From a virus: a stretch of 64,000 nucleotides of DNA. The stretch covers positions 19,040 to 83,039 of the IMG/VR virus record IMGVR_UViG_3300032397_000008. One strand, written 5' to 3'. Position numbers and translations under genes: made by a program. Shown here in pieces: positions 1,937 through 61,407 of this stretch (within the stretch, counting starts at the first letter, position 1; every line of letters begins with the position of its first letter). A model generated the notes under the pieces. The model was given only the letters and a program-made list of their open reading frames with translations. It was not told where the DNA came from and did not search any database.

Positions 1937-3930
1937 ACTTCAAAGCGAAGATCGAACAACTTCGGGCGGAGATTACCCGGCACGGCCGTCTCTATTACAA
2001 CCAACAACCCGAAATCAGCGACGCCGATTATGACGTAAAGTTCAAGGAGTTGGGGGATCTTGAACGTCGGTTTCCTGAGTATGACGATCCGAACTCCCCC
2101 ACGGCACGAGTTGGCAGTCAGGTAGAGAGCGATTTCTCCCAAGGACGGCACAATCATAAAATGTTGTCTTTGGACAATACTTATAGCGCCGAGGAGGTTG
2201 CTACCTTCTTTGATCAGGATGATAAGCTCAAGGTGGTTGTGGCCGGAGAACCGAAGTTCGATGGGTGTTCCCTGGCACTTCACTATCGGGGTGGTCAGTT
2301 GGTACAGGCGATTACCCGAGGAGACGGATCAGTCGGTGAAGACGTGACACGCAGCGCCAGGACCATCAGGAGTATTCCGCTTGTTTTGCACCAACCTATT
2401 GACTTGGAGGTGCGAGGAGAGGTTGTCATGCAATTTTCGGTCTTCGCGGCATTGAATGCGGAGCTGGAGAAACAGGGCGAAGATTTGTTTGCCAACCCAC
2501 GCAACGCCGCCTCGGGCACGCTTAAGCAGAAAGATTCTCGGGTGGTTGCAAAGCGCAACCTTACGTTTATTGCTTATAGCTTGATCTCCGGTCACGTCCA
2601 TAGAACTCATGGCGACGCCATCTATAGCTTGCGGGAGATTGGATTCGTCACACCTATGAACGTGCCCGCTGTCAATGGACATAAGATTGAGGCGCTGTTT
2701 CTAGTTGAGGCGGATGCCATGTCCATCGGTCACGTGATCGAACGTTTCTCTGAATTGCGAGACAACTTCGACTTTCCTATCGATGGTGTCGTTTTCAAGA
2801 TCAACGATATTCAACTTCAGACCGAATTAGGCGATGGAACGCGTGCTCCTAAATGGGCAACAGCTTACAAGTATCCGCCGGAGCGTAAGATAACCCAGCT
2901 TCTTGATATTGAGGTTAGCGTGGGCCGTCATGGCACGATCACACCGGTTGCAATCCTCGCCCCAGTTCAACTTTCCGGTGTCACAGTGACCCGTGCAAGT
3001 CTGTGCAATCAGAACGAAGTTGATCGTTTGGGGATTGCCATCGGGGACGATGTTTATGTGGAACGGAGCGCTGACGTTATCCCAAAACTAATGGGTATAG
3101 CAAAAAAGAACACGGTGCAAACATGGCATCTGCCAGAGCAGTGTCCTTGCTGCAATACCAGGCTGTTGCGGGCTCAGGGCATGGTTGCTTACAAGTGTCC
3201 GAATCACTATTGCAAGGACCAGATTCGCCAGCGCCTGGAGCATGCATGCAGCAGGTCCGCATTGTACATCGACGGTGTTGGACCGGTGTTCATCGCCATG
3301 CTGATTCATCAAGGGGTAACCGACCTGTTGGGTCTTATGACGGTCGAGGTTGATGAGACGTCTGCCGCTAAGCGAAAGTTTGTCAAAGAGCGTAAGAAGG
3401 CGTTTCAGGCTCCATTGTGGCGTAAGCTGTATGCTTTGGGGATTGAGGGCGTAGGAAAATCCAAGTGTCAGGACTTGGTCTCACGGTGGAAATCTTTAGG
3501 TGAAATTGTAGACAACTTTGAGGAAGCCGAAACGGTGGTGCTCGGAGAAGTCCACGCTGCTAGTGTCGCTGATTTCCTACAGGAAAACGTGAGCCTGATC
3601 GAAGGATTGGAGAAGGCGGGATTTCATTTTGAGGAGGATAAGCAGAATATCGGACCGTTGTCGGGTAAGACGTTCGTCATCACGGGAACGCTTATGAGCG
3701 GTAAGCGGGATGACGTGATCCGCAAGATCGAGGCGGCCGGCGGCCGGGTTAGCAGTAGCGTGACGAAGAAGGTACAGTATCTGGTGTGCGGCATAGAGGG
3801 CGGTGCCAACAAGGCCGCTGCGGCGCAGAAGCTAGGTACTACAGTCATAAGCGAAGAGCGGCTTTATGCTCTTCTCGGGGAGGAAATGACACTTGTTAAC
3901 AATTCTCTGGGAGAAGGCGGAGGATTGTAG
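1933..3930 (+). CDS. ligA: NAD+-dependent DNA ligase
   Basis: LigA seals nicks using NAD+ and forms an enzyme-AMP intermediate. The protein is full length at 665 residues, as in bacterial LigA. In order: the Ia/adenylation domain with the KFDG motif (K108 is the nucleotidyl lysine), an OB domain, a four-cysteine zinc finger (CPCC...C...C, about 403-430), helix-hairpin-helix repeats, and a C-terminal BRCT domain starting near LSGKTFVITG (about residue 575). All catalytic blocks appear intact. Its start overlaps the previous stop. Phages more often carry ATP-dependent ligases, so a complete bacterial-type enzyme suggests acquisition from a bacterium. It likely works in replication or recombination with the UvsX/gp46 set. 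Confidence 0.95.
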   Translation: MNFKAKIEQLRAEITRHGRLYYNQQPEISDADYDVKFKELGDLERRFPEYDDPNSPTARVGSQVESDFSQGRHNHKMLSLDNTYSAEEVATFFDQDDKLKVVVAGEPKFDGCSLALHYRGGQLVQAITRGDGSVGEDVTRSARTIRSIPLVLHQPIDLEVRGEVVMQFSVFAALNAELEKQGEDLFANPRNAASGTLKQKDSRVVAKRNLTFIAYSLISGHVHRTHGDAIYSLREIGFVTPMNVPAVNGHKIEALFLVEADAMSIGHVIERFSELRDNFDFPIDGVVFKINDIQLQTELGDGTRAPKWATAYKYPPERKITQLLDIEVSVGRHGTITPVAILAPVQLSGVTVTRASLCNQNEVDRLGIAIGDDVYVERSADVIPKLMGIAKKNTVQTWHLPEQCPCCNTRLLRAQGMVAYKCPNHYCKDQIRQRLEHACSRSALYIDGVGPVFIAMLIHQGVTDLLGLMTVEVDETSAAKRKFVKERKKAFQAPLWRKLYALGIEGVGKSKCQDLVSRWKSLGEIVDNFEEAETVVLGEVHAASVADFLQENVSLIEGLEKAGFHFEEDKQNIGPLSGKTFVITGTLMSGKRDDVIRKIEAAGGRVSSSVTKKVQYLVCGIEGGANKAAAAQKLGTTVISEERLYALLGEEMTLVNNSLGEGGGL

Positions 3931-4222: not shown

Positions 4223-4255
4223 CCCCACCACACCGAAAGGTTTGGTGGGTTTTTT
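4223..4255 (+). terminator. Rho-independent terminator
   Basis: The stem CCCACCA/TGGTGGG, extended by an inner ACC-GAAA-GGT tetraloop, is followed by six T residues. It lies inside the large non-coding region and would end transcripts coming from ligA or from the first part of that region. Confidence 0.7.
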
Positions 4256-4499
4256 GTTGGTTGGAGTTAGAAAGTCTCGGGTAGGAAAACCGCCGAGCGG
4301 CAGAGACAAAACTGCGACGGTAGAGGCAGAGCGTGAAAGCGCAGAGCCGGTGGCAGATCAGGGGCAGCCCGTGTGGTCTGACATCACCAACCTTAGGTCA
4401 AGCGTATTCAGATGCGCTTCACGATAGAAAGTGCGTTCTTGGGAAGAGAGACGGGTCAGACGTTTCTTCGACAGTTTCTCTTCCTTCAATTTTAATGGA

Positions 4500-4562
4500 A
4501 AGGTGGTAGGCTTAGAAGCAGCCAGCCATAAGAGTGACTCGTCCTTCTCTCACGAACCTGTC
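4500..4562 (+). ncRNA. 23S rRNA GTPase-associated-centre-like segment
   Basis: GTAGGCTTAGAAGCAGCCA (4506-4524) matches the helix 43 hairpin of bacterial 23S rRNA, the L11- and thiostrepton-binding site near E. coli 1067, apart from the natural variation at 1061. It is followed by AAGAGTG...CTCAC, resembling helix 44. AGGT/ACCT could close the element. The rRNA comparison is from memory of the conserved 58-nucleotide fragment. Confidence 0.5.
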
Positions 4563-4778
4563 AAGAATCAACTTGCCAGATGACCCCGAAGTCCGAATAC
4601 AAGGGAATCCTTCCAACCTCAGCAATGAGGCCATAGGGCCTTTGCGGAAGGGATGAAAGCGTGGAGCAGCCCGTCAAGCCGGGCGAGGGCTACCGAGTAA
4701 GAAGCGGCGGGATACATGACGGTATTCCGGTCTTTAGCGTAACAGCACGCCTTTCCGTTATTTTTAACATTAGTTTTT

Positions 4779-4852
4779 GCGGGTGTGGTTTAATAGTAGA
4801 ATGTGGCCTTGCCGAGGCTAAGACGAGGGAGCATAACCCTTCACCCGCTCCA
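4779..4852 (+). tRNA. tRNA-Gly(GCC)
   Basis: The acceptor GCGGGTG/CACCCGC is perfect, with discriminator T and encoded CCA. The anticodon loop TTGCCGA gives GCC. The T-loop AGCATAA is non-canonical. First tRNA of the array. Confidence 0.85.
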
Positions 4853-13873: not shown

Positions 13874-14123
13874 TGCCCCAGCGCCCTTGACTGTCAACGA
13901 GTGGCTTACCGCTTATTTGGAAGTCGTGGCTGACAAGGAAGAGCAAGTTCCAAAGGGATACCTGCCCCGTGGGGAGCTTGCCAAAAAGATGGGATGCGGC
14001 ATAGCGACGGCTAGCGAACGTGGTAACGTATTGTATCGTGCGGGCAGGGCGGATCGTATCGAACTCCGTCGTCTGATCGGCGGTAGAATCAGAATAGTTC
14101 CTTACTTCAAGTTGCATTGTTGA
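13794..14123 (+). CDS. Small DNA-binding-like protein
   Basis: About 109 residues; starts at ATG 13794 or 13809, both inside the end of the phosphoesterase gene. The C-terminal two thirds (RGELAKKMGCGIATASERGNVLYRAGRAD, then RRLIGGRIRIVPYFKL) reads like a winged helix-turn-helix with a basic wing. The N-terminus is basic and Pro-rich. It ends two bases before tRNA-Glu(CTC). A local regulator is possible. Confidence 0.5.
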   Translation: MEKSTMKILKKTAPCAALGNSQTPPSDAPAPLTVNEWLTAYLEVVADKEEQVPKGYLPRGELAKKMGCGIATASERGNVLYRAGRADRIELRRLIGGRIRIVPYFKLHC

Positions 14124-16830: not shown

Positions 16831-17267
16831 GGGGGCGTTACGGAATCGACTGACTGAACGAACCCGAATGCGACATGCCAAGGATGATCGTTGGCCTTGT
16901 AAAATCCCGATCAAAAGTCAAATGCTAAACACATATCTGACTCCCTGGTGAACGGTCTTAGGACCGCCTGGGCTCGAATCGTCGATCGTGCGGGTGCATT
17001 GATCGATGCAATTCGTAGCACTGCGGAACCGACCTTCGCCTCGATGGCGGCGTAAGCTACCACGTCCAACTCCCGATGTCTGCTGAGGAGAATGGGCGAA
17101 AACAGCAGGCAAAACAACAGCACTCGTAAGAGCTGATAATCTTCCGATAGGTGCCAGCAGATGCCAGGTGGCTAGGGTGAGCACCGAAGTAAACACCTGG
17201 AGAAGCATGTGTAAGCGTCGGTAAGTGCAGTTAGGACGCGAGGTTCGAATCCTCGCCGCCTCCACCA
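16831..17267 (+). ncRNA. ssrA: Transfer-messenger RNA (tmRNA)
   Basis: tmRNA rescues stalled ribosomes. The 5' end GGGGGCG pairs with 3' CGCCTCC-A-CCA. The 3' part GGACGCGAGGTTCGAATCCT has a canonical T-arm. The 5' part, with ATGCCAAGG...TTGGCCTTGTAAAA, follows the usual tmRNA pattern up to the resume region. The most likely resume codon is GCT at 16924, 93 bases from the 5' end. Read there, the tag frame runs 43 codons to a TAA at 17053-17055 and ends ...FASMAA, an AA end as in natural tags but unusually long. The -1-type alternative beginning at ATG 16922 gives the short MLNTYLTPW and stops. Length is about 437 nt. Confidence 0.93.
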
Positions 17268-36639: not shown

Positions 36640-37227
36640 ATGTCCTCATACACAATACAAAAAGCAAAGCCGGGGTGGAACTACAAACGAGTAGGAAAGA
36701 TCGTTTCGGGTGATCCCTCCCTTAAGCGTTTTATTGGCGAAAAAACTGTCTCTATCGAACGGCGTAACGGGACGACCGTCAATTATTCTCCCGAGCTGAT
36801 TCTACTCATGGAAGCCATGGCGCAGGCCGGCATTCCGCTTCAGACATGCCCTAAGACTACTGTTTTGCAGTTCGCTGCGAGGTTCTGGATTAAGGAATCC
36901 TTCAAGTCCGTATCCGTACCGGTGGTCGCCGCTCCCGCCCAGCCCTCGAAGCCCGCTCCGGCATCCTTAAAAGCGGCTATACCTCGGAAAGAAGAAGTTC
37001 AGAATAAAGTTTTGAAATCAGACGAGAAGCCAACTTTTTGCGCCGCCGTAGCGTTGGCAAATCTGTCCATGTCCATGCTTCAGCTGGCCGAGCATTATGA
37101 CACATCTCCGGGAGCGGATAAGCGCCGGGAGAAACTGAACGCTCTTGCCACTGAGTATGAGCATCTCACAACGAGTTACTTAGACGGATGCTGGGAAGCC
37201 GGCATACGACACAATGCCAAAGCTTAA
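36640..37227 (+). CDS. Unknown protein in recombination-transcription operon
   Basis: 195 residues. The N-terminal ~90 residues are ordered (ERRNGTTVNYSPELILLMEAMAQ in part), then a Pro/Ala/Lys linker, and a helical C-terminal ~65 residues (AVALANLSMSMLQLAEHYD). It overlaps the sigma-factor gene by 14 bases. The two-domain layout with a flexible linker suggests an adaptor, perhaps for DNA or RNA polymerase, but there is no homology evidence. Confidence 0.55.
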   Translation: MSSYTIQKAKPGWNYKRVGKIVSGDPSLKRFIGEKTVSIERRNGTTVNYSPELILLMEAMAQAGIPLQTCPKTTVLQFAARFWIKESFKSVSVPVVAAPAQPSKPAPASLKAAIPRKEEVQNKVLKSDEKPTFCAAVALANLSMSMLQLAEHYDTSPGADKRREKLNALATEYEHLTTSYLDGCWEAGIRHNAKA

Positions 37228-39325
37228 GGTACACGAGCCGATTTCAGGAGAACATATCTTTCCAGCATCTCAAATCACTCCATTGGCGGTAAAGTGGAAG
37301 GAATTGAACACTGCGGGTCGCCATGAGCAGGCGATGCTGATTCTGGAAGATATCGTAAAACTGTCAACTTCTATGTTTGAGCGCCTGGCTCAGCATGAGG
37401 ATTTCCATCATACGGTTGATCTCAGCATCCTGGTGTCGGCCGCTCAAGAGAAGGTGATCAAGTGGCTGCTCCGGTGGAATCCTAAGAAAGGAAGAATTTT
37501 TTCATGGTTTTCGCTTAGTGAGCGAACGCAAATCCTTCTTCCAGATGGTAATACACGACAGATCGGTGATCTAGTAAATGAACGGTATAGCGGTAAGGTG
37601 ATGTGTTGGAATTTTGAAAAGAAAGCATTTGAAGCCAAGCAAGTCACTGACTGGAGTAAAAAACCGTGCAAACGAAAAGATTGGCGTAAACTTATTGTAA
37701 CGCGACCCAGCGGATATTCTCGCTACATTTACATCACCAAAGACCACCGAGTTTGGACCCAAACAGGATGGGCGTGTGTAGATTGGCTCAATCCTAGAGA
37801 TCTCCTTAGTGTCGATAAACCGACTTTGACCAAAGACGGACAAGCAGCTTTGTTGGGTTTGTACTTGGGAGATGGTTCAGTTTTTAAGAATGATTTTCGA
37901 GTTACACACGGAAAAGATCAACGTTTCTACAATGAATGGTTACTGAAGAAATTTAGGGGTAATCTGTACGATTGTCACACTGTTGGGTGGAATAAGTTTA
38001 CCAAGACGACGATGGACCATTCTGGTGAAACTATCATGTATTTCCATGCCGCCGATATGTGGCCAGAATTTGAAAATTTGAGTCATCCTAAGAAGATTAC
38101 TCCGTGGATTTTGGATCGTCTTACACCACTAAGTTTAGCGATATGGTATATGGACGACGGCAGCTACGCAGAAAGTCAATTCGGTCAAGTGACGTTGGCG
38201 TCCCATGGATTTACTGAGCCGGAGCGTGGGCTTATTGTGAATGCTCTCAAGTGCCGATTTGGCATAACTGCTAATACGCACAAGGGTGGCTCCATATACG
38301 TCACCGAACAATCTAAGAATACGTTTTTTTCTCTTATTGCGCCGTATGTATTACAAGAATTCAGCTACAAGATAAAAGAGTCTTATCGACATGTTTCAAA
38401 GGTTGATTCCATGTTCGTTGAAGATCAAATAGAGCTAGTCAGTCACAAAGATATCGCCGTTTCAGGAGAAAGTTACTGGGAAGCAAAGAAGGTGTTTAAG
38501 CCGGTTTACAGGTCTGGCGAGACTACAAAAATGCTTCGATGGAAGTACGATTTGACCGTAGAAGGTAATCACAACTTTTTTGCGGGTCGATGTAAGTTGT
38601 TGGTATCCAACTCCAAATGTGCCAAGCACGCTTTTCTTTCTGAACTGGTCAAGGTCAACCAGTACCGAAAACGGTATCATGTTACCGGTGATAACCTGGA
38701 GAAATACTTCGGGGAGGTTGACCAGACTAGTGAGCGTCACAACCTGGCGGAGGAGTTTAATAACCGTCTGAAGACGCTTTATTGCTACTGGGGTAGCTTA
38801 CAGGAGCGAGGGGCGATTCGATATCTAGTGGAATGTGTCATAGACCTGGATAATCATGACCGGCAGGAGGCGATTCGCGGAGCTGCCTATGCTTACGGTA
38901 TCGGAATTGATTTGTCCAAATTTTTCTATAACTTCGTGCTGGTATCTTTGCGAGACCTGCATTACGATAAGATTCGTGTTTCGGTATCAGAGCACGACCT
39001 GCTGCGACTCCAGCAGGCGTATTCGACGTTTATGTTTTTGATGGAGGAGCTTCCTCCTGATAAGATCAAACGATTTATAGCGGTGTACGGCGGACAGAGA
39101 TTCAAGGTGCCAACCATACAGCAGGTGTACAAGCTAAAAGAAGATTTCAAAATCTTTCAAGAGATCGATCGAAGCAGTCAGGACCCGGATGCGATCAATG
39201 AAGCAGCTAAGAAGTTCAAGAAAACGCCACGCACGGCCTCGGAAATTTACCACGAGATGGCAGAAACACTTAACCCCGCCAGGAACGGGGAATTTGGAGT
39301 TTACAGCGACGACCCGTATGAATGA
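37214..39325 (+). CDS. gp55-like late sigma factor interrupted by an intein
   Basis: The exteins (residues 1-99 and 467-703) join as NPKKGRIFSWF-SKCAKHAFLSEL, the core-binding region 2 helix of phage gp55-like sigma factors. The C-extein continues with acidic and basic helices suited to contact with core polymerase and sliding clamp. The intein (100-466) begins with Ser and ends SN before Ser467. Such a factor would direct late transcription; the GTAGTTA boxes upstream of virion genes are its likely targets. The gene is followed by a second sigma-like gene overlapping its stop. Confidence 0.75.
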   Translation: MPKLKVHEPISGEHIFPASQITPLAVKWKELNTAGRHEQAMLILEDIVKLSTSMFERLAQHEDFHHTVDLSILVSAAQEKVIKWLLRWNPKKGRIFSWFSLSERTQILLPDGNTRQIGDLVNERYSGKVMCWNFEKKAFEAKQVTDWSKKPCKRKDWRKLIVTRPSGYSRYIYITKDHRVWTQTGWACVDWLNPRDLLSVDKPTLTKDGQAALLGLYLGDGSVFKNDFRVTHGKDQRFYNEWLLKKFRGNLYDCHTVGWNKFTKTTMDHSGETIMYFHAADMWPEFENLSHPKKITPWILDRLTPLSLAIWYMDDGSYAESQFGQVTLASHGFTEPERGLIVNALKCRFGITANTHKGGSIYVTEQSKNTFFSLIAPYVLQEFSYKIKESYRHVSKVDSMFVEDQIELVSHKDIAVSGESYWEAKKVFKPVYRSGETTKMLRWKYDLTVEGNHNFFAGRCKLLVSNSKCAKHAFLSELVKVNQYRKRYHVTGDNLEKYFGEVDQTSERHNLAEEFNNRLKTLYCYWGSLQERGAIRYLVECVIDLDNHDRQEAIRGAAYAYGIGIDLSKFFYNFVLVSLRDLHYDKIRVSVSEHDLLRLQQAYSTFMFLMEELPPDKIKRFIAVYGGQRFKVPTIQQVYKLKEDFKIFQEIDRSSQDPDAINEAAKKFKKTPRTASEIYHEMAETLNPARNGEFGVYSDDPYE
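37511..38611 (+). mobile_element. Intein with LAGLIDADG homing endonuclease in the sigma factor
   Basis: The splicing block starts SLSERTQILLPDG (Ser1 instead of the usual Cys) and TKDHRVWTQTGW is block B. Two LAGLIDADG motifs are seen: ALLGLYLGDGSV and SLAIWYMDDGSY. The C-terminal block is DLTVEGNHNFFAGRC...LLVSN with Asn466 and +1 Ser. The penultimate residue is Ser rather than His, which may slow splicing. Length 367 residues. Confidence 0.88.
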
Positions 39326-56504: not shown

Positions 56505-57635
56505 ATGCCACCGCAGCCCCAACCCCAGCGCGAGAGTTCTAAACGAACTAGTGGTCGTTTGACGGCGTTGCAGTCTACATACGTATTAGACACGCATGAC
56601 TTGCCTACTTGGCAGGGGCAGGCACTCTTTTTTCCTGCTATGCCGGATGTCATAGAATTGGCTCGCAAGACGGATTATGCAGTGGTGAATGCTCGCTATG
56701 CGCCGGATGGCATACACATCTATAAGAGCACTTTTCCCTTGGAAATTCCTATCACGTTTAAGTTAGCATCCAATGACATCGACTTTTGTCCCAAGGGCGT
56801 CTATTCTCTGCTTCAAATGGCAGCACTCTTACATGCCTTGGTGCTACCTTTGGGAACGCAAGATAAGAAAGTTACTGCGACCCAAATGGCATCTACCGTT
56901 GGAGAGCCCGCTCCGGCCATTGCTGGTCAGCCGAGCACTTCAAGCGCAAGTAATGCACAAGACCCGAACGTAAGCACTTCTTGCGAGCAAGATGATGCGC
57001 TTCGACCTCCGGTAACTTGTGCGCTAGAATTGATGTGGACCGAGGCAGAGGGTCCCGGTATCGTGTGCATCGGGTATGTCAAGGATGTGTCCGCGAAATT
57101 TTCAGGTCCATGGCTGAGGGGACCTCGTCAGTCTTTCAACCTTCCATCGTTTTGCGATTTTTCGTTTACGTTTGTTCATGCTCCTGGGTATGGTAATGAT
57201 TATACCAAAACGGGGCAGGGATTAGGTCAGCAGGTGCACGCTTACGCTCAGTACGTGGAGAAGCACTTCTATAGCACGTTTGGTCTGTCTAACAATGGGG
57301 CGGCCGGGTCAAAATACAGGGGACTTAGAGACGGACCGCCAAAAGGCACAAAGCCACCGAACGTGCCGCCCGTGACGGCTGCTCAGGAAGCAACCTTACC
57401 TTCAACTCTTGAAGCTAGAGTTAAGGCTGAAACAAATAAGAATGAGAATCTGATCACGCAGCGCGATCGGCAAGAAAATTGGGCAATATATTTAGGCGAA
57501 AGTGGCAATCCTATGAGTCAGGAGGCATACAGGCAGCTCGCTGAGCAGACTCGACAAATCAATACTCAAAATTATGTGCCTGTGACCACATCCCGTTGGA
57601 GCATGATAGGCGTGGTAGGTCGTGGACATTATTAA
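56505..57635 (+). CDS. Virion structural protein (tail/baseplate candidate)
   Basis: 376 residues. After a short basic arm, a beta-rich domain: ALFFPAMPDVIELARKTDYAVVNARYAPDGIHIYKSTFPLEIP (quoted in part). A long Gln/Ala/Thr-rich linker follows, then CALELMWTEAEGPGIVCIGYVKDV and LPSFCDFSFTFVHAPGYGND, resembling phage tail-tube or baseplate beta domains. Ends beside the convergent gp46 gene, overlapping its end by 4 bases. Motif B upstream and adjacency to the tape measure support a tail role. Confidence 0.6.
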   Translation: MPPQPQPQRESSKRTSGRLTALQSTYVLDTHDLPTWQGQALFFPAMPDVIELARKTDYAVVNARYAPDGIHIYKSTFPLEIPITFKLASNDIDFCPKGVYSLLQMAALLHALVLPLGTQDKKVTATQMASTVGEPAPAIAGQPSTSSASNAQDPNVSTSCEQDDALRPPVTCALELMWTEAEGPGIVCIGYVKDVSAKFSGPWLRGPRQSFNLPSFCDFSFTFVHAPGYGNDYTKTGQGLGQQVHAYAQYVEKHFYSTFGLSNNGAAGSKYRGLRDGPPKGTKPPNVPPVTAAQEATLPSTLEARVKAETNKNENLITQRDRQENWAIYLGESGNPMSQEAYRQLAEQTRQINTQNYVPVTTSRWSMIGVVGRGHY

Positions 57636-60600
57636 GCCCACTTGAACGTGGTGCCATCGTCTTCAGTCTTTTCAGCGATCAGGATGTAATCTGCAAAATT
57701 TGCTGTTTCCTGATGATGATCTACCACGAAGATTAAAATTCCTAGAGTGTGAGCAACCTGTTTCATGTAGGATAGGATGCTCTTGCGCACAGCGGGGTCT
57801 TGAGAGTTCAGTACTTCATCATACCATCGGTAACCGATTCGATTGGACACCTGACCGACCTCGGACAACGTCTCAGCGATGATCAGATTAGTGAGACCGC
57901 TCTCTCCCTTGGAATTACCGGCAATCTTCTTTGATCCTATCCGGTTGTTTACGTTGACCGTCAGTTCGGCTTTCGAATCCCCGCTGGCAAGCGCACGGGA
58001 CGTGGCGTAGGTGACTTCAATAGTGCCACCGGTCATAAGCAGGCTGATACGCCGGGCAATCTCATTCAGGGGATTTATCACTTCTCCTAGCACCATGTTG
58101 GGTATGCCAAACGGACCGAATCCACGATTCCAATAATCTACAATCTTCAGAACTTCCTGTGACTGAAATAGTTTCGTGGATGTTTCTTCTACACTGCCAG
58201 ATGCCTTTTTGTGTTCCTCCTGGCGTTCTTCGAACACTGTCTTGGCTCGCAATAAAGTAGAGTTGTCAGGACCTCGTTCTAATGCCGCCAGGGTTACCTG
58301 GAGGCTTCTGATGTTGTCTTTAATGCGGTTTAACTCTCGATCCGACTCCTCATATTGATTACTCAGCGTTGTGGTTTCCCGGGCACCTCCTAGGTTGCGG
58401 ATATCGGCGTCAATCTCTCGGACCGTGGTTTCATACTGTTGCACGGTGGTGCTCGCTACACGCAAATTTGCGGCGAAGGTGTCAAGCGCTTTCTGAGCTT
58501 CCACAATCGAAGTCTGTTGCCGTTCCAGTTCTTCCTGACCGTATGCCTTGTCCCACGCCTTGCCGCACGTTGGGCAATTCTTTGGGACTGACTTCATCTT
58601 GGCTAGAGCCTGTTCTTCCTGGCGAATTTTAGCTTGTGCCTCCGCCCGAGGAGCATGAAGTGTGTCACGCTTGGCACGGTGCTCCGTCAGCTCGCGCTCA
58701 ATTTTGTTGCGTTGCTTTTCCAGCTCATGGTGCTGGCGTGCCTTTTCATCTTCGATCTCTTTGAGTCGCTTACGAATATCAGCTAACGTTTTTACCAGCT
58801 CCTGCGCTCGTATGTCCAGACGGGACTGACTCGCCTTCGATTCTACAAGTTTGGTGTGGTTCCTGGCTACTTCTTCATCGAACGCACGTTGCGCTGTTTT
58901 CAGGGCATCTTGAGCTTGATTCTTGGCAACGATAACTGACTGTAAGCGGCGGCGGGCTTCTTCGATCATCGCTTGATCGGTTGCGAGGTCTCGCTTGGCA
59001 TTTTGTAGTGCTTTGGAAGACTTTTCGGCATAGAAAGTCCAAGGAGGCTGCTGGAGCGACCACATAAGAACGTCTACAGCGTCTTTTTCAGATAGTTTAC
59101 TGAACTTGAGGTTGTCACCGTCAATGAACACTGTCCACTGGGCCAATTCGGGTGTGACGTTGACTACCCTTGTTAGTTCCTCTCGTGTTTCGGTGAGATG
59201 TCCTCGCTCGATGGGTGTCTCTTGGCCGATGGTGTAGCGCAGTCCTTCACCAGTGCGGCTGAGTTCTTTGCACTTGAATCCCATTTCAACTCTTAGGGGT
59301 TGATCGTTGAGAGTCGTGCGTAAGTCAATGTAAGTGTTACCTTTGTCGTTGTGACTGTAATCGCCTAGCTTGCTAAATTTGCCTGTTACGCCAACCAAAG
59401 ACCGGCTAATTGCTTCTCCGAGGGACGTCTTGCCTGAGTTATGCGTTACCGTGAAATCATCCAGAAGGTACAAACCATCCCTGTCTAAAGTGAATCCGTA
59501 GAAGTCATTTTCGTCCAAGTGTTTAATCGAAAATCCAGTAACGTTGTGTTGTCTGTTACTGTTCGATTTATCCGCTTTTTTGCGTAGTAGGTGAGTTGGT
59601 ATGTCTTCTATACGTCCGAAAATAGACACGGTATAGCACCACGCACCATTACCTGTCTGGCATTTTTTGAATCTAGGTGCTGGTAGCCGAGCAGTGAACC
59701 CTAAACTACGAGCTAGAAAAGCAGTATCTGTAGCAATCGTTTTGCTGGTACTGTAGAAGTAAAAGCACTTATTAGCGTAATATCCATCAGAATCCAACAA
59801 TCCTGATAGTAAGTTCAAGCGGTCATTTCTTGACGCTGTTTTGTATTGAAACGGTATGTGTTTGTTGTTTATTAAGTTGTACTCTTTAAGAAGTCTCAAA
59901 ACTGTATTTTTCCCGGAATTTTCGAACCGGCCAGATCGCTTGTTTCTATTACGCCCAGCAGAACCTGCCGAAATGAAGATACTTTTGCAACGGGCTTGGT
60001 GCTTTTTTTGGCATCTGACAGATAGACCAAGTCGAGTGGCGTAGGATATCCATTCGTTTTCGACCTCTGCGTCAGCGGTTGTTATAGCTGAAGTTCTGCT
60101 ATGGCCGTCTCCCAGCCATAGTCCTAGTATCCTTGGTGGTATTTTTAGGTTGCCCAGATTGCTGAAGTCTACGGCGTCGCTGGTGTACAGTTTGCAACTA
60201 TCGCGCTTATGCCTACTCATGTTCAGAAAATCTTTAACCGAGACAGTGAAGTATCCTTTGGCGCATGGTTCGGTAGGCGCGTAGTTGCAGTGTTTTCTGC
60301 ATCTTACAGAATTTTTGTCTACAATGTACTGTCCTGGAGTAAGGTAAAGTGCCAAAATATGATCTTCGTTGATGATAAATTCATGGCCGTGTAATGGCAC
60401 TATTTTGAACATTTTGCCTCTCCCACGGCACAGCTTCATCACTTCTCTCGGAGCTGAATCTGGACCCATTAACTTGTCTCCAACCGTGATACTTTCTACG
60501 GGTGCAAGCCTACCATCGTGTAACAGAACCAGTTGTCCTTTGGCGTGGCACCCCACGGAGTCCATCTTGCCATTTGAGGCACGGTTTGATCCTGTAACCA

Positions 60601-60691
60601 AGACGAGACCCTTGTCAGGAAACTCTATTTCTGCATCGTGGACCTGCTGCCAGTTGCGAATGTGGATTGATTTAAGCGTCAGTTGAGCCAT
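57632..60691 (-). CDS. gp46/SbcC-like recombination ATPase with intein in the P-loop
   Basis: ATG 60691 follows GCAGGAG, one of the better Shine-Dalgarno sites. Exteins: MAQLTLKSIHIRNWQQVHDAEI..., a Walker A split as NGKMDSVG | SGKTSLGEAI, a long coiled coil with a zinc-hook CPTC (NCPTCGKAW) and a C-terminal ABC-type half with SGGE-like QESGLTNLIIAE signature and Walker B (ILIFVVDHHQ). It resects DNA ends with a gp47/SbcD-type nuclease not seen in this window. The intein occupies residues 48-418. Confidence 0.88.
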   Translation of the reverse strand: MAQLTLKSIHIRNWQQVHDAEIEFPDKGLVLVTGSNRASNGKMDSVGCHAKGQLVLLHDGRLAPVESITVGDKLMGPDSAPREVMKLCRGRGKMFKIVPLHGHEFIINEDHILALYLTPGQYIVDKNSVRCRKHCNYAPTEPCAKGYFTVSVKDFLNMSRHKRDSCKLYTSDAVDFSNLGNLKIPPRILGLWLGDGHSRTSAITTADAEVENEWISYATRLGLSVRCQKKHQARCKSIFISAGSAGRNRNKRSGRFENSGKNTVLRLLKEYNLINNKHIPFQYKTASRNDRLNLLSGLLDSDGYYANKCFYFYSTSKTIATDTAFLARSLGFTARLPAPRFKKCQTGNGAWCYTVSIFGRIEDIPTHLLRKKADKSNSNRQHNVTGFSIKHLDENDFYGFTLDRDGLYLLDDFTVTHNSGKTSLGEAISRSLVGVTGKFSKLGDYSHNDKGNTYIDLRTTLNDQPLRVEMGFKCKELSRTGEGLRYTIGQETPIERGHLTETREELTRVVNVTPELAQWTVFIDGDNLKFSKLSEKDAVDVLMWSLQQPPWTFYAEKSSKALQNAKRDLATDQAMIEEARRRLQSVIVAKNQAQDALKTAQRAFDEEVARNHTKLVESKASQSRLDIRAQELVKTLADIRKRLKEIEDEKARQHHELEKQRNKIERELTEHRAKRDTLHAPRAEAQAKIRQEEQALAKMKSVPKNCPTCGKAWDKAYGQEELERQQTSIVEAQKALDTFAANLRVASTTVQQYETTVREIDADIRNLGGARETTTLSNQYEESDRELNRIKDNIRSLQVTLAALERGPDNSTLLRAKTVFEERQEEHKKASGSVEETSTKLFQSQEVLKIVDYWNRGFGPFGIPNMVLGEVINPLNEIARRISLLMTGGTIEVTYATSRALASGDSKAELTVNVNNRIGSKKIAGNSKGESGLTNLIIAETLSEVGQVSNRIGYRWYDEVLNSQDPAVRKSILSYMKQVAHTLGILIFVVDHHQETANFADYILIAEKTEDDGTTFKWA
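59438..60550 (-). mobile_element. Intein with LAGLIDADG nuclease in the gp46 Walker A
   Basis: CHAKGQLVLLHDG starts the N-terminal splicing block (Cys1) and NEDHILALY is a block B. LAGLIDADG motifs are LGLWLGDGHS and LLSGLLDSDGYY. The C-terminal block ends DDFTVTHN with +1 Ser of SGKTS. It sits inside the P-loop between G and SGKT, the classic intein site in ATPases. 371 residues, all blocks apparently intact. Confidence 0.92.
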
Positions 60692-60697
60692 TCTCCT

Positions 60698-60708
60698 GCA
60701 TAGAACGG
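60698..60708 (-). promoter_or_regulatory. Motif A (CCGTTCTATGC) box of gp46
   Basis: On the minus strand this ends six bases before the ATG at 60691. The divergent motif B of 60724 lies a few bases away, so the two genes have back-to-back promoters of different class. Confidence 0.5.
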
Positions 60709-60712
60709 ATTT

Positions 60713-60723
60713 GTAGTTAAAGC
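60713..60723 (+). promoter_or_regulatory. Motif B (GTAGTTAAAGC) box
   Basis: Canonical box joined to the ATG at 60724. Confidence 0.6.
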
Positions 60724-61407
60724 ATGAAAGTTGAAGATCTAGTATCAGTAATTCTGGAAGATGAAGGCGATAGTTTACCCGGGGCTCTGTTCTATTTTGA
60801 TGGAATGGCCACAAAAGGATATTACGTATCCCCTCCTGAAAAAGGGGACATTCTTGCTAAAATTGTAGACATCATTGCCAAACTGCGCCCTGCCCTTTTT
60901 GCTAGTAACAGGGAGCTTCCGGATGCTGATCGGGTAATCGAGGCCATGATGAACCAGTATAATTTGATCGTAGCACTGAACTTCGAAAATGAAATAGCAA
61001 TCTATTCCAAGAACTCCAATTTTAATTTGCCGGAAGAGTTCAATGATAAACTGAAGTACTATTTCGGTGCGACTCCGGAAACTGAAGCTGTGTGGTTTAC
61101 AACACTGGCCAGCGAGACACCGATTGTAGCGAAGCTTTTCAAGTCGGATCAGCGTAAGAAAGACTCACGCGCTCCCTCAACGACTCCCAACGAGGATGAA
61201 CCAGAAGTTCCGATCGCTTCTTTACTGGGTGTTGCCAAGCCAGCTGACCTGGCGACTGCGCCTTGGAGCCTCAGTGATTTAAAAAAGGTAGGTGCTAGAG
61301 GTAAGGCCAAACCCCTTAGCTATCACGATCGAGCTGATTTTAGGGGTCATTTTTGGGGACCGGACCGAGAACCGATGACGGGTGACTTGGATCAGTTAGG
61401 ATATTGA
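60724..61407 (+). CDS. Protein with capsid-targeting-like N-terminus
   Basis: 227 residues; N-terminus MKVEDLVSVILEDEGDS is an amphipathic helix ending in I-L-E. The first ~140 residues contain ALFYFDGMATKGYYVSP and a helical region (ADRVIEAMMNQYNLI); the C-terminal half is linker-like, ending in basic WSLSDLKKVGARGKAK segments. Canonical motif B upstream. Likely a head-internal protein cut by the gp21-type protease. No catalytic motif is seen. Confidence 0.55.
   Translation: MKVEDLVSVILEDEGDSLPGALFYFDGMATKGYYVSPPEKGDILAKIVDIIAKLRPALFASNRELPDADRVIEAMMNQYNLIVALNFENEIAIYSKNSNFNLPEEFNDKLKYYFGATPETEAVWFTTLASETPIVAKLFKSDQRKKDSRAPSTTPNEDEPEVPIASLLGVAKPADLATAPWSLSDLKKVGARGKAKPLSYHDRADFRGHFWGPDREPMTGDLDQLGY

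What the first reader, a model, noticed from the sequence alone, without database searches (positions are those of the whole stretch)
4500..4562. 23S GTPase-centre mimic inside a phage RNA
GTAGGCTTAGAAGCAGCCA matches the universal 23S helix 43 loop that binds L11 and contacts elongation factors; flanking AAGAGTG...CTCAC resembles helix 44. Chance identity of 19 bases at this exact functional element is unlikely. A decoy for L11, EF-G, RelA or a thiopeptide-like antibiotic can be imagined.
Basis: partly seen in the sequence, partly recalled or inferred. Interest (0 to 1): 0.85.

Follow-up and report, generated by a model that had tools for sequence, protein, structure and literature searches.

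The report
Phage RNA mimicking ribosomal L11 site
Many large bacteriophages, mostly ones that carry their own transfer-RNA genes, also carry an unannotated RNA that rebuilds the part of the bacterial ribosome where protein L11 binds, probably so as to capture that protein and tune the host's protein synthesis.

Summary
The 19-base match is real (4506-4524) and not chance. It is the 5' half of a complete copy of the 23S GTPase-associated centre (GAC, the 58-nt L11 site). The copy is interrupted after position 1090, in the 5' strand of helix 44, by an insert of 25 to about 350 nt. The true 3' half, TTTAGCGTAACAGCACGCC, lies about 230 nt downstream (4733-4751) and an 11-bp stem closes the RNA (4493-4503/4750-4760).

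At least 120 distinct sequences in phage and prophage-like DNA share this design. Searching with either half finds the other: 85/93 and 79/82, controls near zero. Stems covary strongly in 79 dereplicated members (22-48 double changes per pair). The 1082-1086 tertiary pair of 23S covaries too. No other region of the rRNA operon recurs. The RNA lies among phage tRNA genes, always on their strand, often flush with them. Rfam has no model for it and I found no description in the held literature.

Best explanation: a phage RNA that binds host ribosomal protein uL11, probably as a decoy. The structure is well supported; binding and function are inferred. The window's own copy is a divergent member lacking three nucleotides.

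The parts
4493..4760 (+). Predicted RNA carrying the interrupted GAC (268 nt between the outer ends of the closing stem; true ends unknown). Lies between the DNA ligase gene (ends 3930) and the first tRNA (4779).
   Evidence: Two halves plus closing stem. Members elsewhere are flush with tRNAs.
4493..4503 (+). 5' strand of closing stem (TAATGGAAAGG), in the place of the outer part of 23S helix 42
   Evidence: 11 of 11 pairs (one G-U) with 4750-4760. The same stem covaries across 79 members.
4504..4528 (+). Helix 43: TGG/CCA (1057-1059/1079-1081), bulged UA/AG, GGCU/AGCC stem, loop UAGAAGC (1066-1072; A1067 = 4514)
   Evidence: Matches E. coli 23S. 1058-1080 covaries in the family.
4529..4535 (+). 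Junction and start of helix 44: U1082, A1084, A1085, G1087 (4532), A1088, G1089, U1090. Two nucleotides of the 1082-1086 loop are missing compared with most members.
   Evidence: link is 8 nt here, 10 nt in 92 members.
4536..4732 (+). Insert (197 nt) between 1090 and 1091. Base stem GACU (4536-4539) pairs with GGUC (4729-4732).
   Evidence: The base stem of the insert is 91-100% paired over its first 3 pairs with 21-43 double changes.
4733..4751 (+). 3' half: linker UUUA, then GCGUAACAGC (1091-1100; A1095 = 4741), A1101, C1102, G1103, C1104
   Evidence: Only match of the 3' pattern in the window, on either strand.
4750..4760 (+). 3' strand of closing stem (CCTTTCCGTTA)
4779..4849 (+). First tRNA gene of the phage tRNA array, 18 nt after the closing stem
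   Evidence: Rfam tRNA 50 bits.

Best explanation
It is a phage-encoded noncoding RNA built on a complete, independently folding copy of the 23S rRNA GTPase-associated centre, the binding site of ribosomal protein uL11. A variable arm is inserted at position 1090 and a private stem closes the domain. SHOWN by comparison: the two-part domain, its closing stem, the base stem of the insert, its spread across many phages, and its place among tRNA genes. INFERRED: the RNA is cut out of the tRNA-array transcript by tRNA-processing enzymes, folds like the L11 site, and binds host uL11 (the phages examined encode none). By titrating uL11 away from new or exchanging 50S subunits it would make part of the ribosome pool L11-poor. 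That would blunt L11-dependent events such as RelA activation by uncharged tRNA, which a cell making many extra phage tRNAs would otherwise be prone to. The variable insert may add a phage-specific task.
For: Each half predicts the other: 85 of 93 viral loci found by the 3' half have the 5' half upstream with at most 3 mismatches (reverse-complement control 0/93, downstream control 2). In the other direction 79/82 (69 with closing stem, null 4/410). Covariation in 79 members of the closing stem, helix-43 base and insert stem and of the 23S tertiary pair 1082-1086 (71/79 paired, shuffles at most 58). Core positions such as U1066, G1071, C1072, A1084, A1085 and A1088 hold in all 79, while loop tip 1067-1070 drifts, unlike real 23S; that fits recognition of the folded core. 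BLAST of the E. coli rRNA operon against 119 loci: 89 hits in 23S 1050-1108, otherwise tRNA and isolated hits. 64 of 119 lie within 500 nt of a tRNA, all on the same strand (random positions 34%). The insert can shrink to a 25-nt hairpin, so the GAC is the constant part. L11 is absent from 50 member phages. The 58-nt domain folds on its own and is the known L11 site (PMC4409310); L11 mediates RelA binding (PMC9998046).
Against: No binding, expression or phenotype data. Energy folding of the window RNA prefers another helix-44 arrangement (-92.5 against -79.4 kcal/mol with the GAC enforced), although such models omit tertiary contacts and protein. The window copy lacks 1056 and two nucleotides of the 1082-1086 loop, so its L11 affinity may be reduced. 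uL11 is abundant and already ribosome-bound, so titration needs a very abundant RNA. A domain that only bound L11 would not obviously need an insert. Many loci (39/119) show no tRNA on the stretch held.
Confidence: 0.52

Rival explanations
1. tRNA-elbow binder. In the ribosome the GAC touches the tRNA elbow through A1067 and the L1 stalk touches the E-site tRNA. The phage RNA could use its GAC to hold, shield or help process the phage tRNAs made next to it.
For: Location inside tRNA arrays, always on the same strand and often flush with tRNAs. A1067 stacks on the tRNA elbow (PMC5829649). A rarer L1-stalk mimic also occurs in phage DNA, in one case beside a tRNA.
Against: Position 1067 and the loop tip are the least conserved part of the domain, while the core is constant. 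An isolated GAC is not known to me to bind tRNA well.
Confidence: 0.12
2. uL11-docked effector. Binding uL11 is only the anchor; the variable insert does the work, for example by blocking the stalk base or carrying an RNA to free uL11 or assembling 50S.
For: The insert has its own conserved base stem and recurrent submotifs, e.g. GGCACCCCGGAAACGGTAAGG-like in about 23 of 120 members.
Against: Inserts differ widely and can be a bare 25-nt hairpin.
Confidence: 0.14
3. Cis-acting uL11-sensing element. Like ribosomal-protein leaders that mimic rRNA, it lets uL11 control processing or expression of the tRNA-array transcript.
For: rRNA mimicry is the standard trick of ribosomal-protein leaders (PMC7247131, PMC10931766). 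Same strand as the tRNAs.
Against: It often lies between two tRNA genes rather than before an ORF, and is usually a self-closed domain without a terminator or start site in its insert (read by eye).
Confidence: 0.1
4. Decoy for EF-G, RelA or thiopeptide antibiotics.
For: A1067 and A1095 are both present in most members and in the window.
Against: About a fifth of members lack A1067, the crucial residue for thiostrepton. Factor contacts on the ribosome need the sarcin-ricin loop as well, which BLAST of the rRNA operon did not find.
Confidence: 0.06
5. Chance match, rRNA contamination or a decaying 23S fragment.
For: Viral collections do hold some real 23S sequence.
Against: Flanks are phage DNA; the 3' half has AGCACAC where 23S has AGCTCAC; closing and insert stems covary; two independent searches converge.
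Confidence: 0.01

Closest known systems
GTPase-associated centre of 23S rRNA (helices 42-44, E. coli 1051-1108)
   Same: Helix 43, the 1082-1086 tertiary pair, A1088/U1060, C1072/C1092/G1099 and the helix-44 loop.
   Different: Free-standing phage RNA; insert of 25-350 nt after 1090; U1101 is A and pairs with U1090; outer helix 42 replaced by an arbitrary stem; loop tip drifts.
rRNA-mimicking ribosomal-protein leaders (uL1, L20, S15, S4 and others)
   Same: Imitate the rRNA binding site of a ribosomal protein.
   Different: Not in an mRNA leader of a ribosomal-protein gene; encoded by phages beside tRNAs; no L11-type leader is named in the survey read (PMC7247131).
GOLLD and ROOL RNAs
   Same: Structured noncoding RNAs of phages and prophages, often near tRNA islands, function unknown (PMC12286853).
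   Different: Different sequence and structure, 600-800+ nt; Rfam models for them do not match.
Phage T4 species 1 and 2 RNAs (rnaC, rnaD)
   Same: Small stable RNAs encoded next to phage tRNAs.
   Different: Neither GAC half is visible in their sequences.
OLE RNA (proposed to sequester RpsU)
   Same: Idea of a noncoding RNA that holds a ribosomal protein (PMC12286853).
   Different: Bacterial, unrelated structure, different protein.

Membership tests
23S GTPase-associated centre fold (L11-binding domain) | Helix 43 with 7-nt loop and bulged U1060/1061 | tested here: met
   Window 4504-4528; 79-member alignment.
23S GTPase-associated centre fold (L11-binding domain) | Helix 44 with loop GUAAYA, G1091-C1100 and C1092-G1099 | tested here: met
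   Found unbiased downstream of the 5' half in 69/82 with closing stem; window 4737-4746.
23S GTPase-associated centre fold (L11-binding domain) | Tertiary pair 1082-1086 | tested here: inconclusive
   Met in the family (71/79 standard pairs against a shuffle mean of 49). The window copy lacks two nucleotides of this loop.
23S GTPase-associated centre fold (L11-binding domain) | Contiguous 58-nt domain | tested here: not met
   Interrupted after 1090 in all members analysed; half-to-half distance 58-398 nt. It resembles the GAC but is not a piece of 23S rRNA.
23S GTPase-associated centre fold (L11-binding domain) | Binds uL11 | not testable with these tools
   Needs a binding assay.
GOLLD / ROOL / any Rfam 15 family | Match to a covariance model at its gathering score | tested here: not met
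   Only tRNA (and tmRNA in the window) matched in the window and 20 member loci.
Ribosomal-protein leader | Lies in the mRNA leader of a ribosomal-protein gene | tested here: not met
   Lies among tRNAs; no L11 gene in 50 phages.
T4 species 1/2 RNA | Sequence similarity | tested here: not met
   Sequence of rnaC/rnaD read by eye; no GAC halves.

The most novel reading that the evidence does not exclude
Phages carry a class of trans-acting RNAs that copy ribosomal-protein binding sites of the 50S stalks (uL11 site widely, uL1 site rarely) to strip or withhold these proteins from host ribosomes. That would make specialised ribosomes and silence the stringent response during infection.
Probability: 0.35. 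Interest if true: 0.95.

Novelty: categorically new. Interest (0 to 1): 0.88.

Why it matters
It would be, as far as I could find, the first widespread viral RNA that rebuilds a functional domain of the large ribosomal subunit. It suggests that phages remodel ribosomes with RNA, not only with proteins and tRNAs, and gives a testable link between phage tRNA arrays and L11-dependent control such as the stringent response. Isolated phages that carry it (pf16, Astolliot, UNO-G1W1, Aeromonas 4_4572, XacN1, GAP32) make it testable now. It could also serve as an RNA tool to bind L11.

Tried and rejected
Rfam, gathering scores and low-threshold E-values: only tRNA/tmRNA above cut-off; the Betaproteobacteria-1 hit (23.8 bits, cut-off 49.4) is below threshold. 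T4 rnaC/rnaD as relatives: rejected. Phage-encoded L11 as partner: 0 of 50. Phage-encoded L12-like hits in 8 of 50, several short and weak: no matched control, not used. Energy folding alone does not recover the helix-44 junction. Close relatives of the window RNA: only the same virus again (L226). Ten literature searches and the XacN1, GOLLD/ROOL and ribosomal-leader papers gave no mention of such an RNA; bioRxiv and most subscription papers could not be searched. Invariance at 1059/1060 and at several 3' positions is partly imposed by my search patterns; one search gives the unbiased view of the 3' half.

Full report
What is there. The window is part of an 83-kb IMG/VR phage record with T4-like head genes (gp23-like major head protein and prohead protease) and a tRNA array. 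GTAGGCTTAGAAGCAGCCA lies at 4506-4524 and equals E. coli 23S 1059-1077 except at 1061. A window scan finds the 15-base core once.

From match to family. A scan of IMG/VR for GGCTTAGAAGCAGCC returned at least 120 stretches. Most carry the longer 23S consensus GG..GTnGGCTTAGAAGCAGCCATC.TTTAAAGAGTG and then diverge from 23S. Reading on, nearly all have a second conserved string 60-400 nt later, TTTGGCGTAAYAGCACACC, which is 23S 1091-1104 with U1101 changed to A. Together the two strings rebuild the whole 58-nt GTPase-associated centre. The 5' strand of helix 44 is interrupted after position 1090.

Tests of the two-part model. (a) The strict 3' pattern occurs within 700 nt downstream in 58 of 85 distinct loci, upstream in 1, on the reverse strand in 0. 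(b) A separate scan with the 3' half, which is not an rRNA string, found 93 distinct viral loci. Of these 85 have the 5' half upstream with at most 3 mismatches; the reverse-complement control gives 0 and the downstream control 2. Thirteen of 17 bacterial-genome contig hits (mostly metagenome-assembled genomes) behave the same way. (c) A fuzzy search from the 5' side recovers the 3' half plus closing stem in 69 of 82 loci against 4 of 410 shuffles; 10 of the 13 others have the 3' half with a weaker stem. (d) In 79 dereplicated members the closing stem (first 7 pairs 84-100% paired; 22-48 double changes per pair after the invariant first pair), helix-43 pair 1058-1080 (99%, 46 double changes) and the first three pairs of the insert stem (91-100%, 21-43 double changes) covary. 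The 23S tertiary pair 1082-1086 appears as UA, CG and AU (71/79 paired; best shuffle 58).

The window member. Closing stem 4493-4503/4750-4760 (11 of 11 pairs, one G-U), helix 43 at 4504-4528, G1087 at 4532, insert 4536-4732 with base stem GACU/GGUC, 3' half 4733-4751, A1095 at 4741. Compared with the common form it lacks 1056 and two nucleotides of the 1082-1086 loop (link 8 nt against 10 in 92 members), so it is a divergent member. Its only near relative in the collection is the same virus.

Genomic setting. 64 of 119 members lie within 500 nt of a tRNA, all on the tRNA's strand; random positions on the same loci give 34%. Many abut tRNAs by 0-10 nt on one or both sides. Lengths are 101-441 nt, median 214; ORFs of 80 aa or more cover 24% of the RNA against 69% of the loci. 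Of the 80 listed 3'-half hits 39 are on contigs of at least 80 kb, against 7 of 80 listed hits of an arbitrary 14-mer (my count). Isolates include Pseudomonas phages pf16, Milchi, Astolliot and UNO-G1W1, Aeromonas 4_4572, Xanthomonas XacN1, Cronobacter GAP32 and relatives. Both halves were located in six of them: pf16, XacN1, 4_4572, Astolliot, UNO-G1W1 and GAP32. In those six annotated records no RNA feature covers it.

Specificity. BLAST of the E. coli rRNA operon against 119 loci gave 89 hits in 23S 1050-1108, a handful to tRNA-Glu, one 16S 530-loop-like string and one L1-stalk match; the reversed control gave none. The copying is of this domain, not of rRNA in general.

How it may work. 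Within the domain, the loop tip 1067-1070 that touches tRNA, factors and thiopeptides drifts in phages (1067: 78 A, 15 G, 3 C, 1 U) but not in 52 matches from 43 bacterial genomes. The folded core is almost constant. That points to a partner that reads the core fold; the known one is uL11 (PMC4409310). None of 50 member phages encodes L11, so the partner would be the host protein. L11 mediates RelA activation by uncharged tRNA (PMC9998046). A phage that makes many tRNAs has a plausible reason to dampen it. This chain from uL11 binding to RelA is inference. The insert can be a 25-nt hairpin, so it is not needed in every case.

Novelty. No Rfam 15 model matches. Ten searches of open-access papers found no such RNA, and the XacN1 paper does not mention one. 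Known relatives by idea are ribosomal leaders that mimic rRNA (PMC7247131, PMC10931766), GOLLD/ROOL (PMC12286853) and T4 species 1/2 RNAs. None is an L11-site mimic encoded in trans by a phage. Preprints and closed papers were out of reach.

Limits. No expression, ends or binding data exist here. Energy folding of the window RNA does not by itself favour the helix-44 junction. Some 'invariant' positions were fixed by the search patterns; one search is the fair test of the 3' half.

Noticed in passing
L172 (IMGVR_UViG_3300028833_002293), reversed locus 13947-14017; also L218 about 1235-1310: A second kind of rRNA mimic: the 23S L1-stalk (uL1 site), e.g. ATGAGTGTAGGATAGGTGGGAG...CAACCTTGAAATACCACCCTCAT with a private closing stem and non-rRNA flanks; in L172 about 60 nt before a tRNA-Arg and 3.5 kb from that phage's GAC RNA.
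   Followed up: partly
window 16831-17267, + strand: Phage-encoded tmRNA (Rfam 100 bits) in the tRNA array; one frame reads MLNTYLTPW then stop, unlike the usual -LAA tag, and the region after it is unusually long.
   Followed up: partly
window 4224-4258 and 4262-4490: Terminator-like hairpin CCCCACCACACCGAAAGGTTTGGTGGGTTTTTT, then about 230 nt of non-coding sequence before the GAC RNA that could be a further RNA; GC-rich stretches, no Rfam match.
   Followed up: no
inserts of about 23 of 120 members, e.g. L012, L065, L074, L107, L146: Recurrent submotif GGCACCCCGGAAACGGTAAGG (tetraloop hairpin whose closing pair varies G-C, A-U, G-U) near the 3' end of the insert; meaning unknown.
   Followed up: partly
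8 of 50 member phages, e.g. L224, L225: L7/L12-like protein matches (4 over the Pfam cut-off); could be relevant since L12 sits at the same stalk, but no matched control was run.
   Followed up: no
L006, reverse strand about 3354-3377: 24-base string with one mismatch to the 16S 530 loop (CCAGCAGCCGCGGAAATACGGAGG); flanks do not look like 16S.
   Followed up: partly
L063, 5134 and 5452: Two GAC 5' motifs about 320 nt apart on the same strand, separated by a tRNA-Pro.
   Followed up: no
window 37214-39325 and 57632-60814: Intein or homing-endonuclease insertions, in a protein with similarity to a late transcription activator and in an SbcC-like protein.
   Followed up: no
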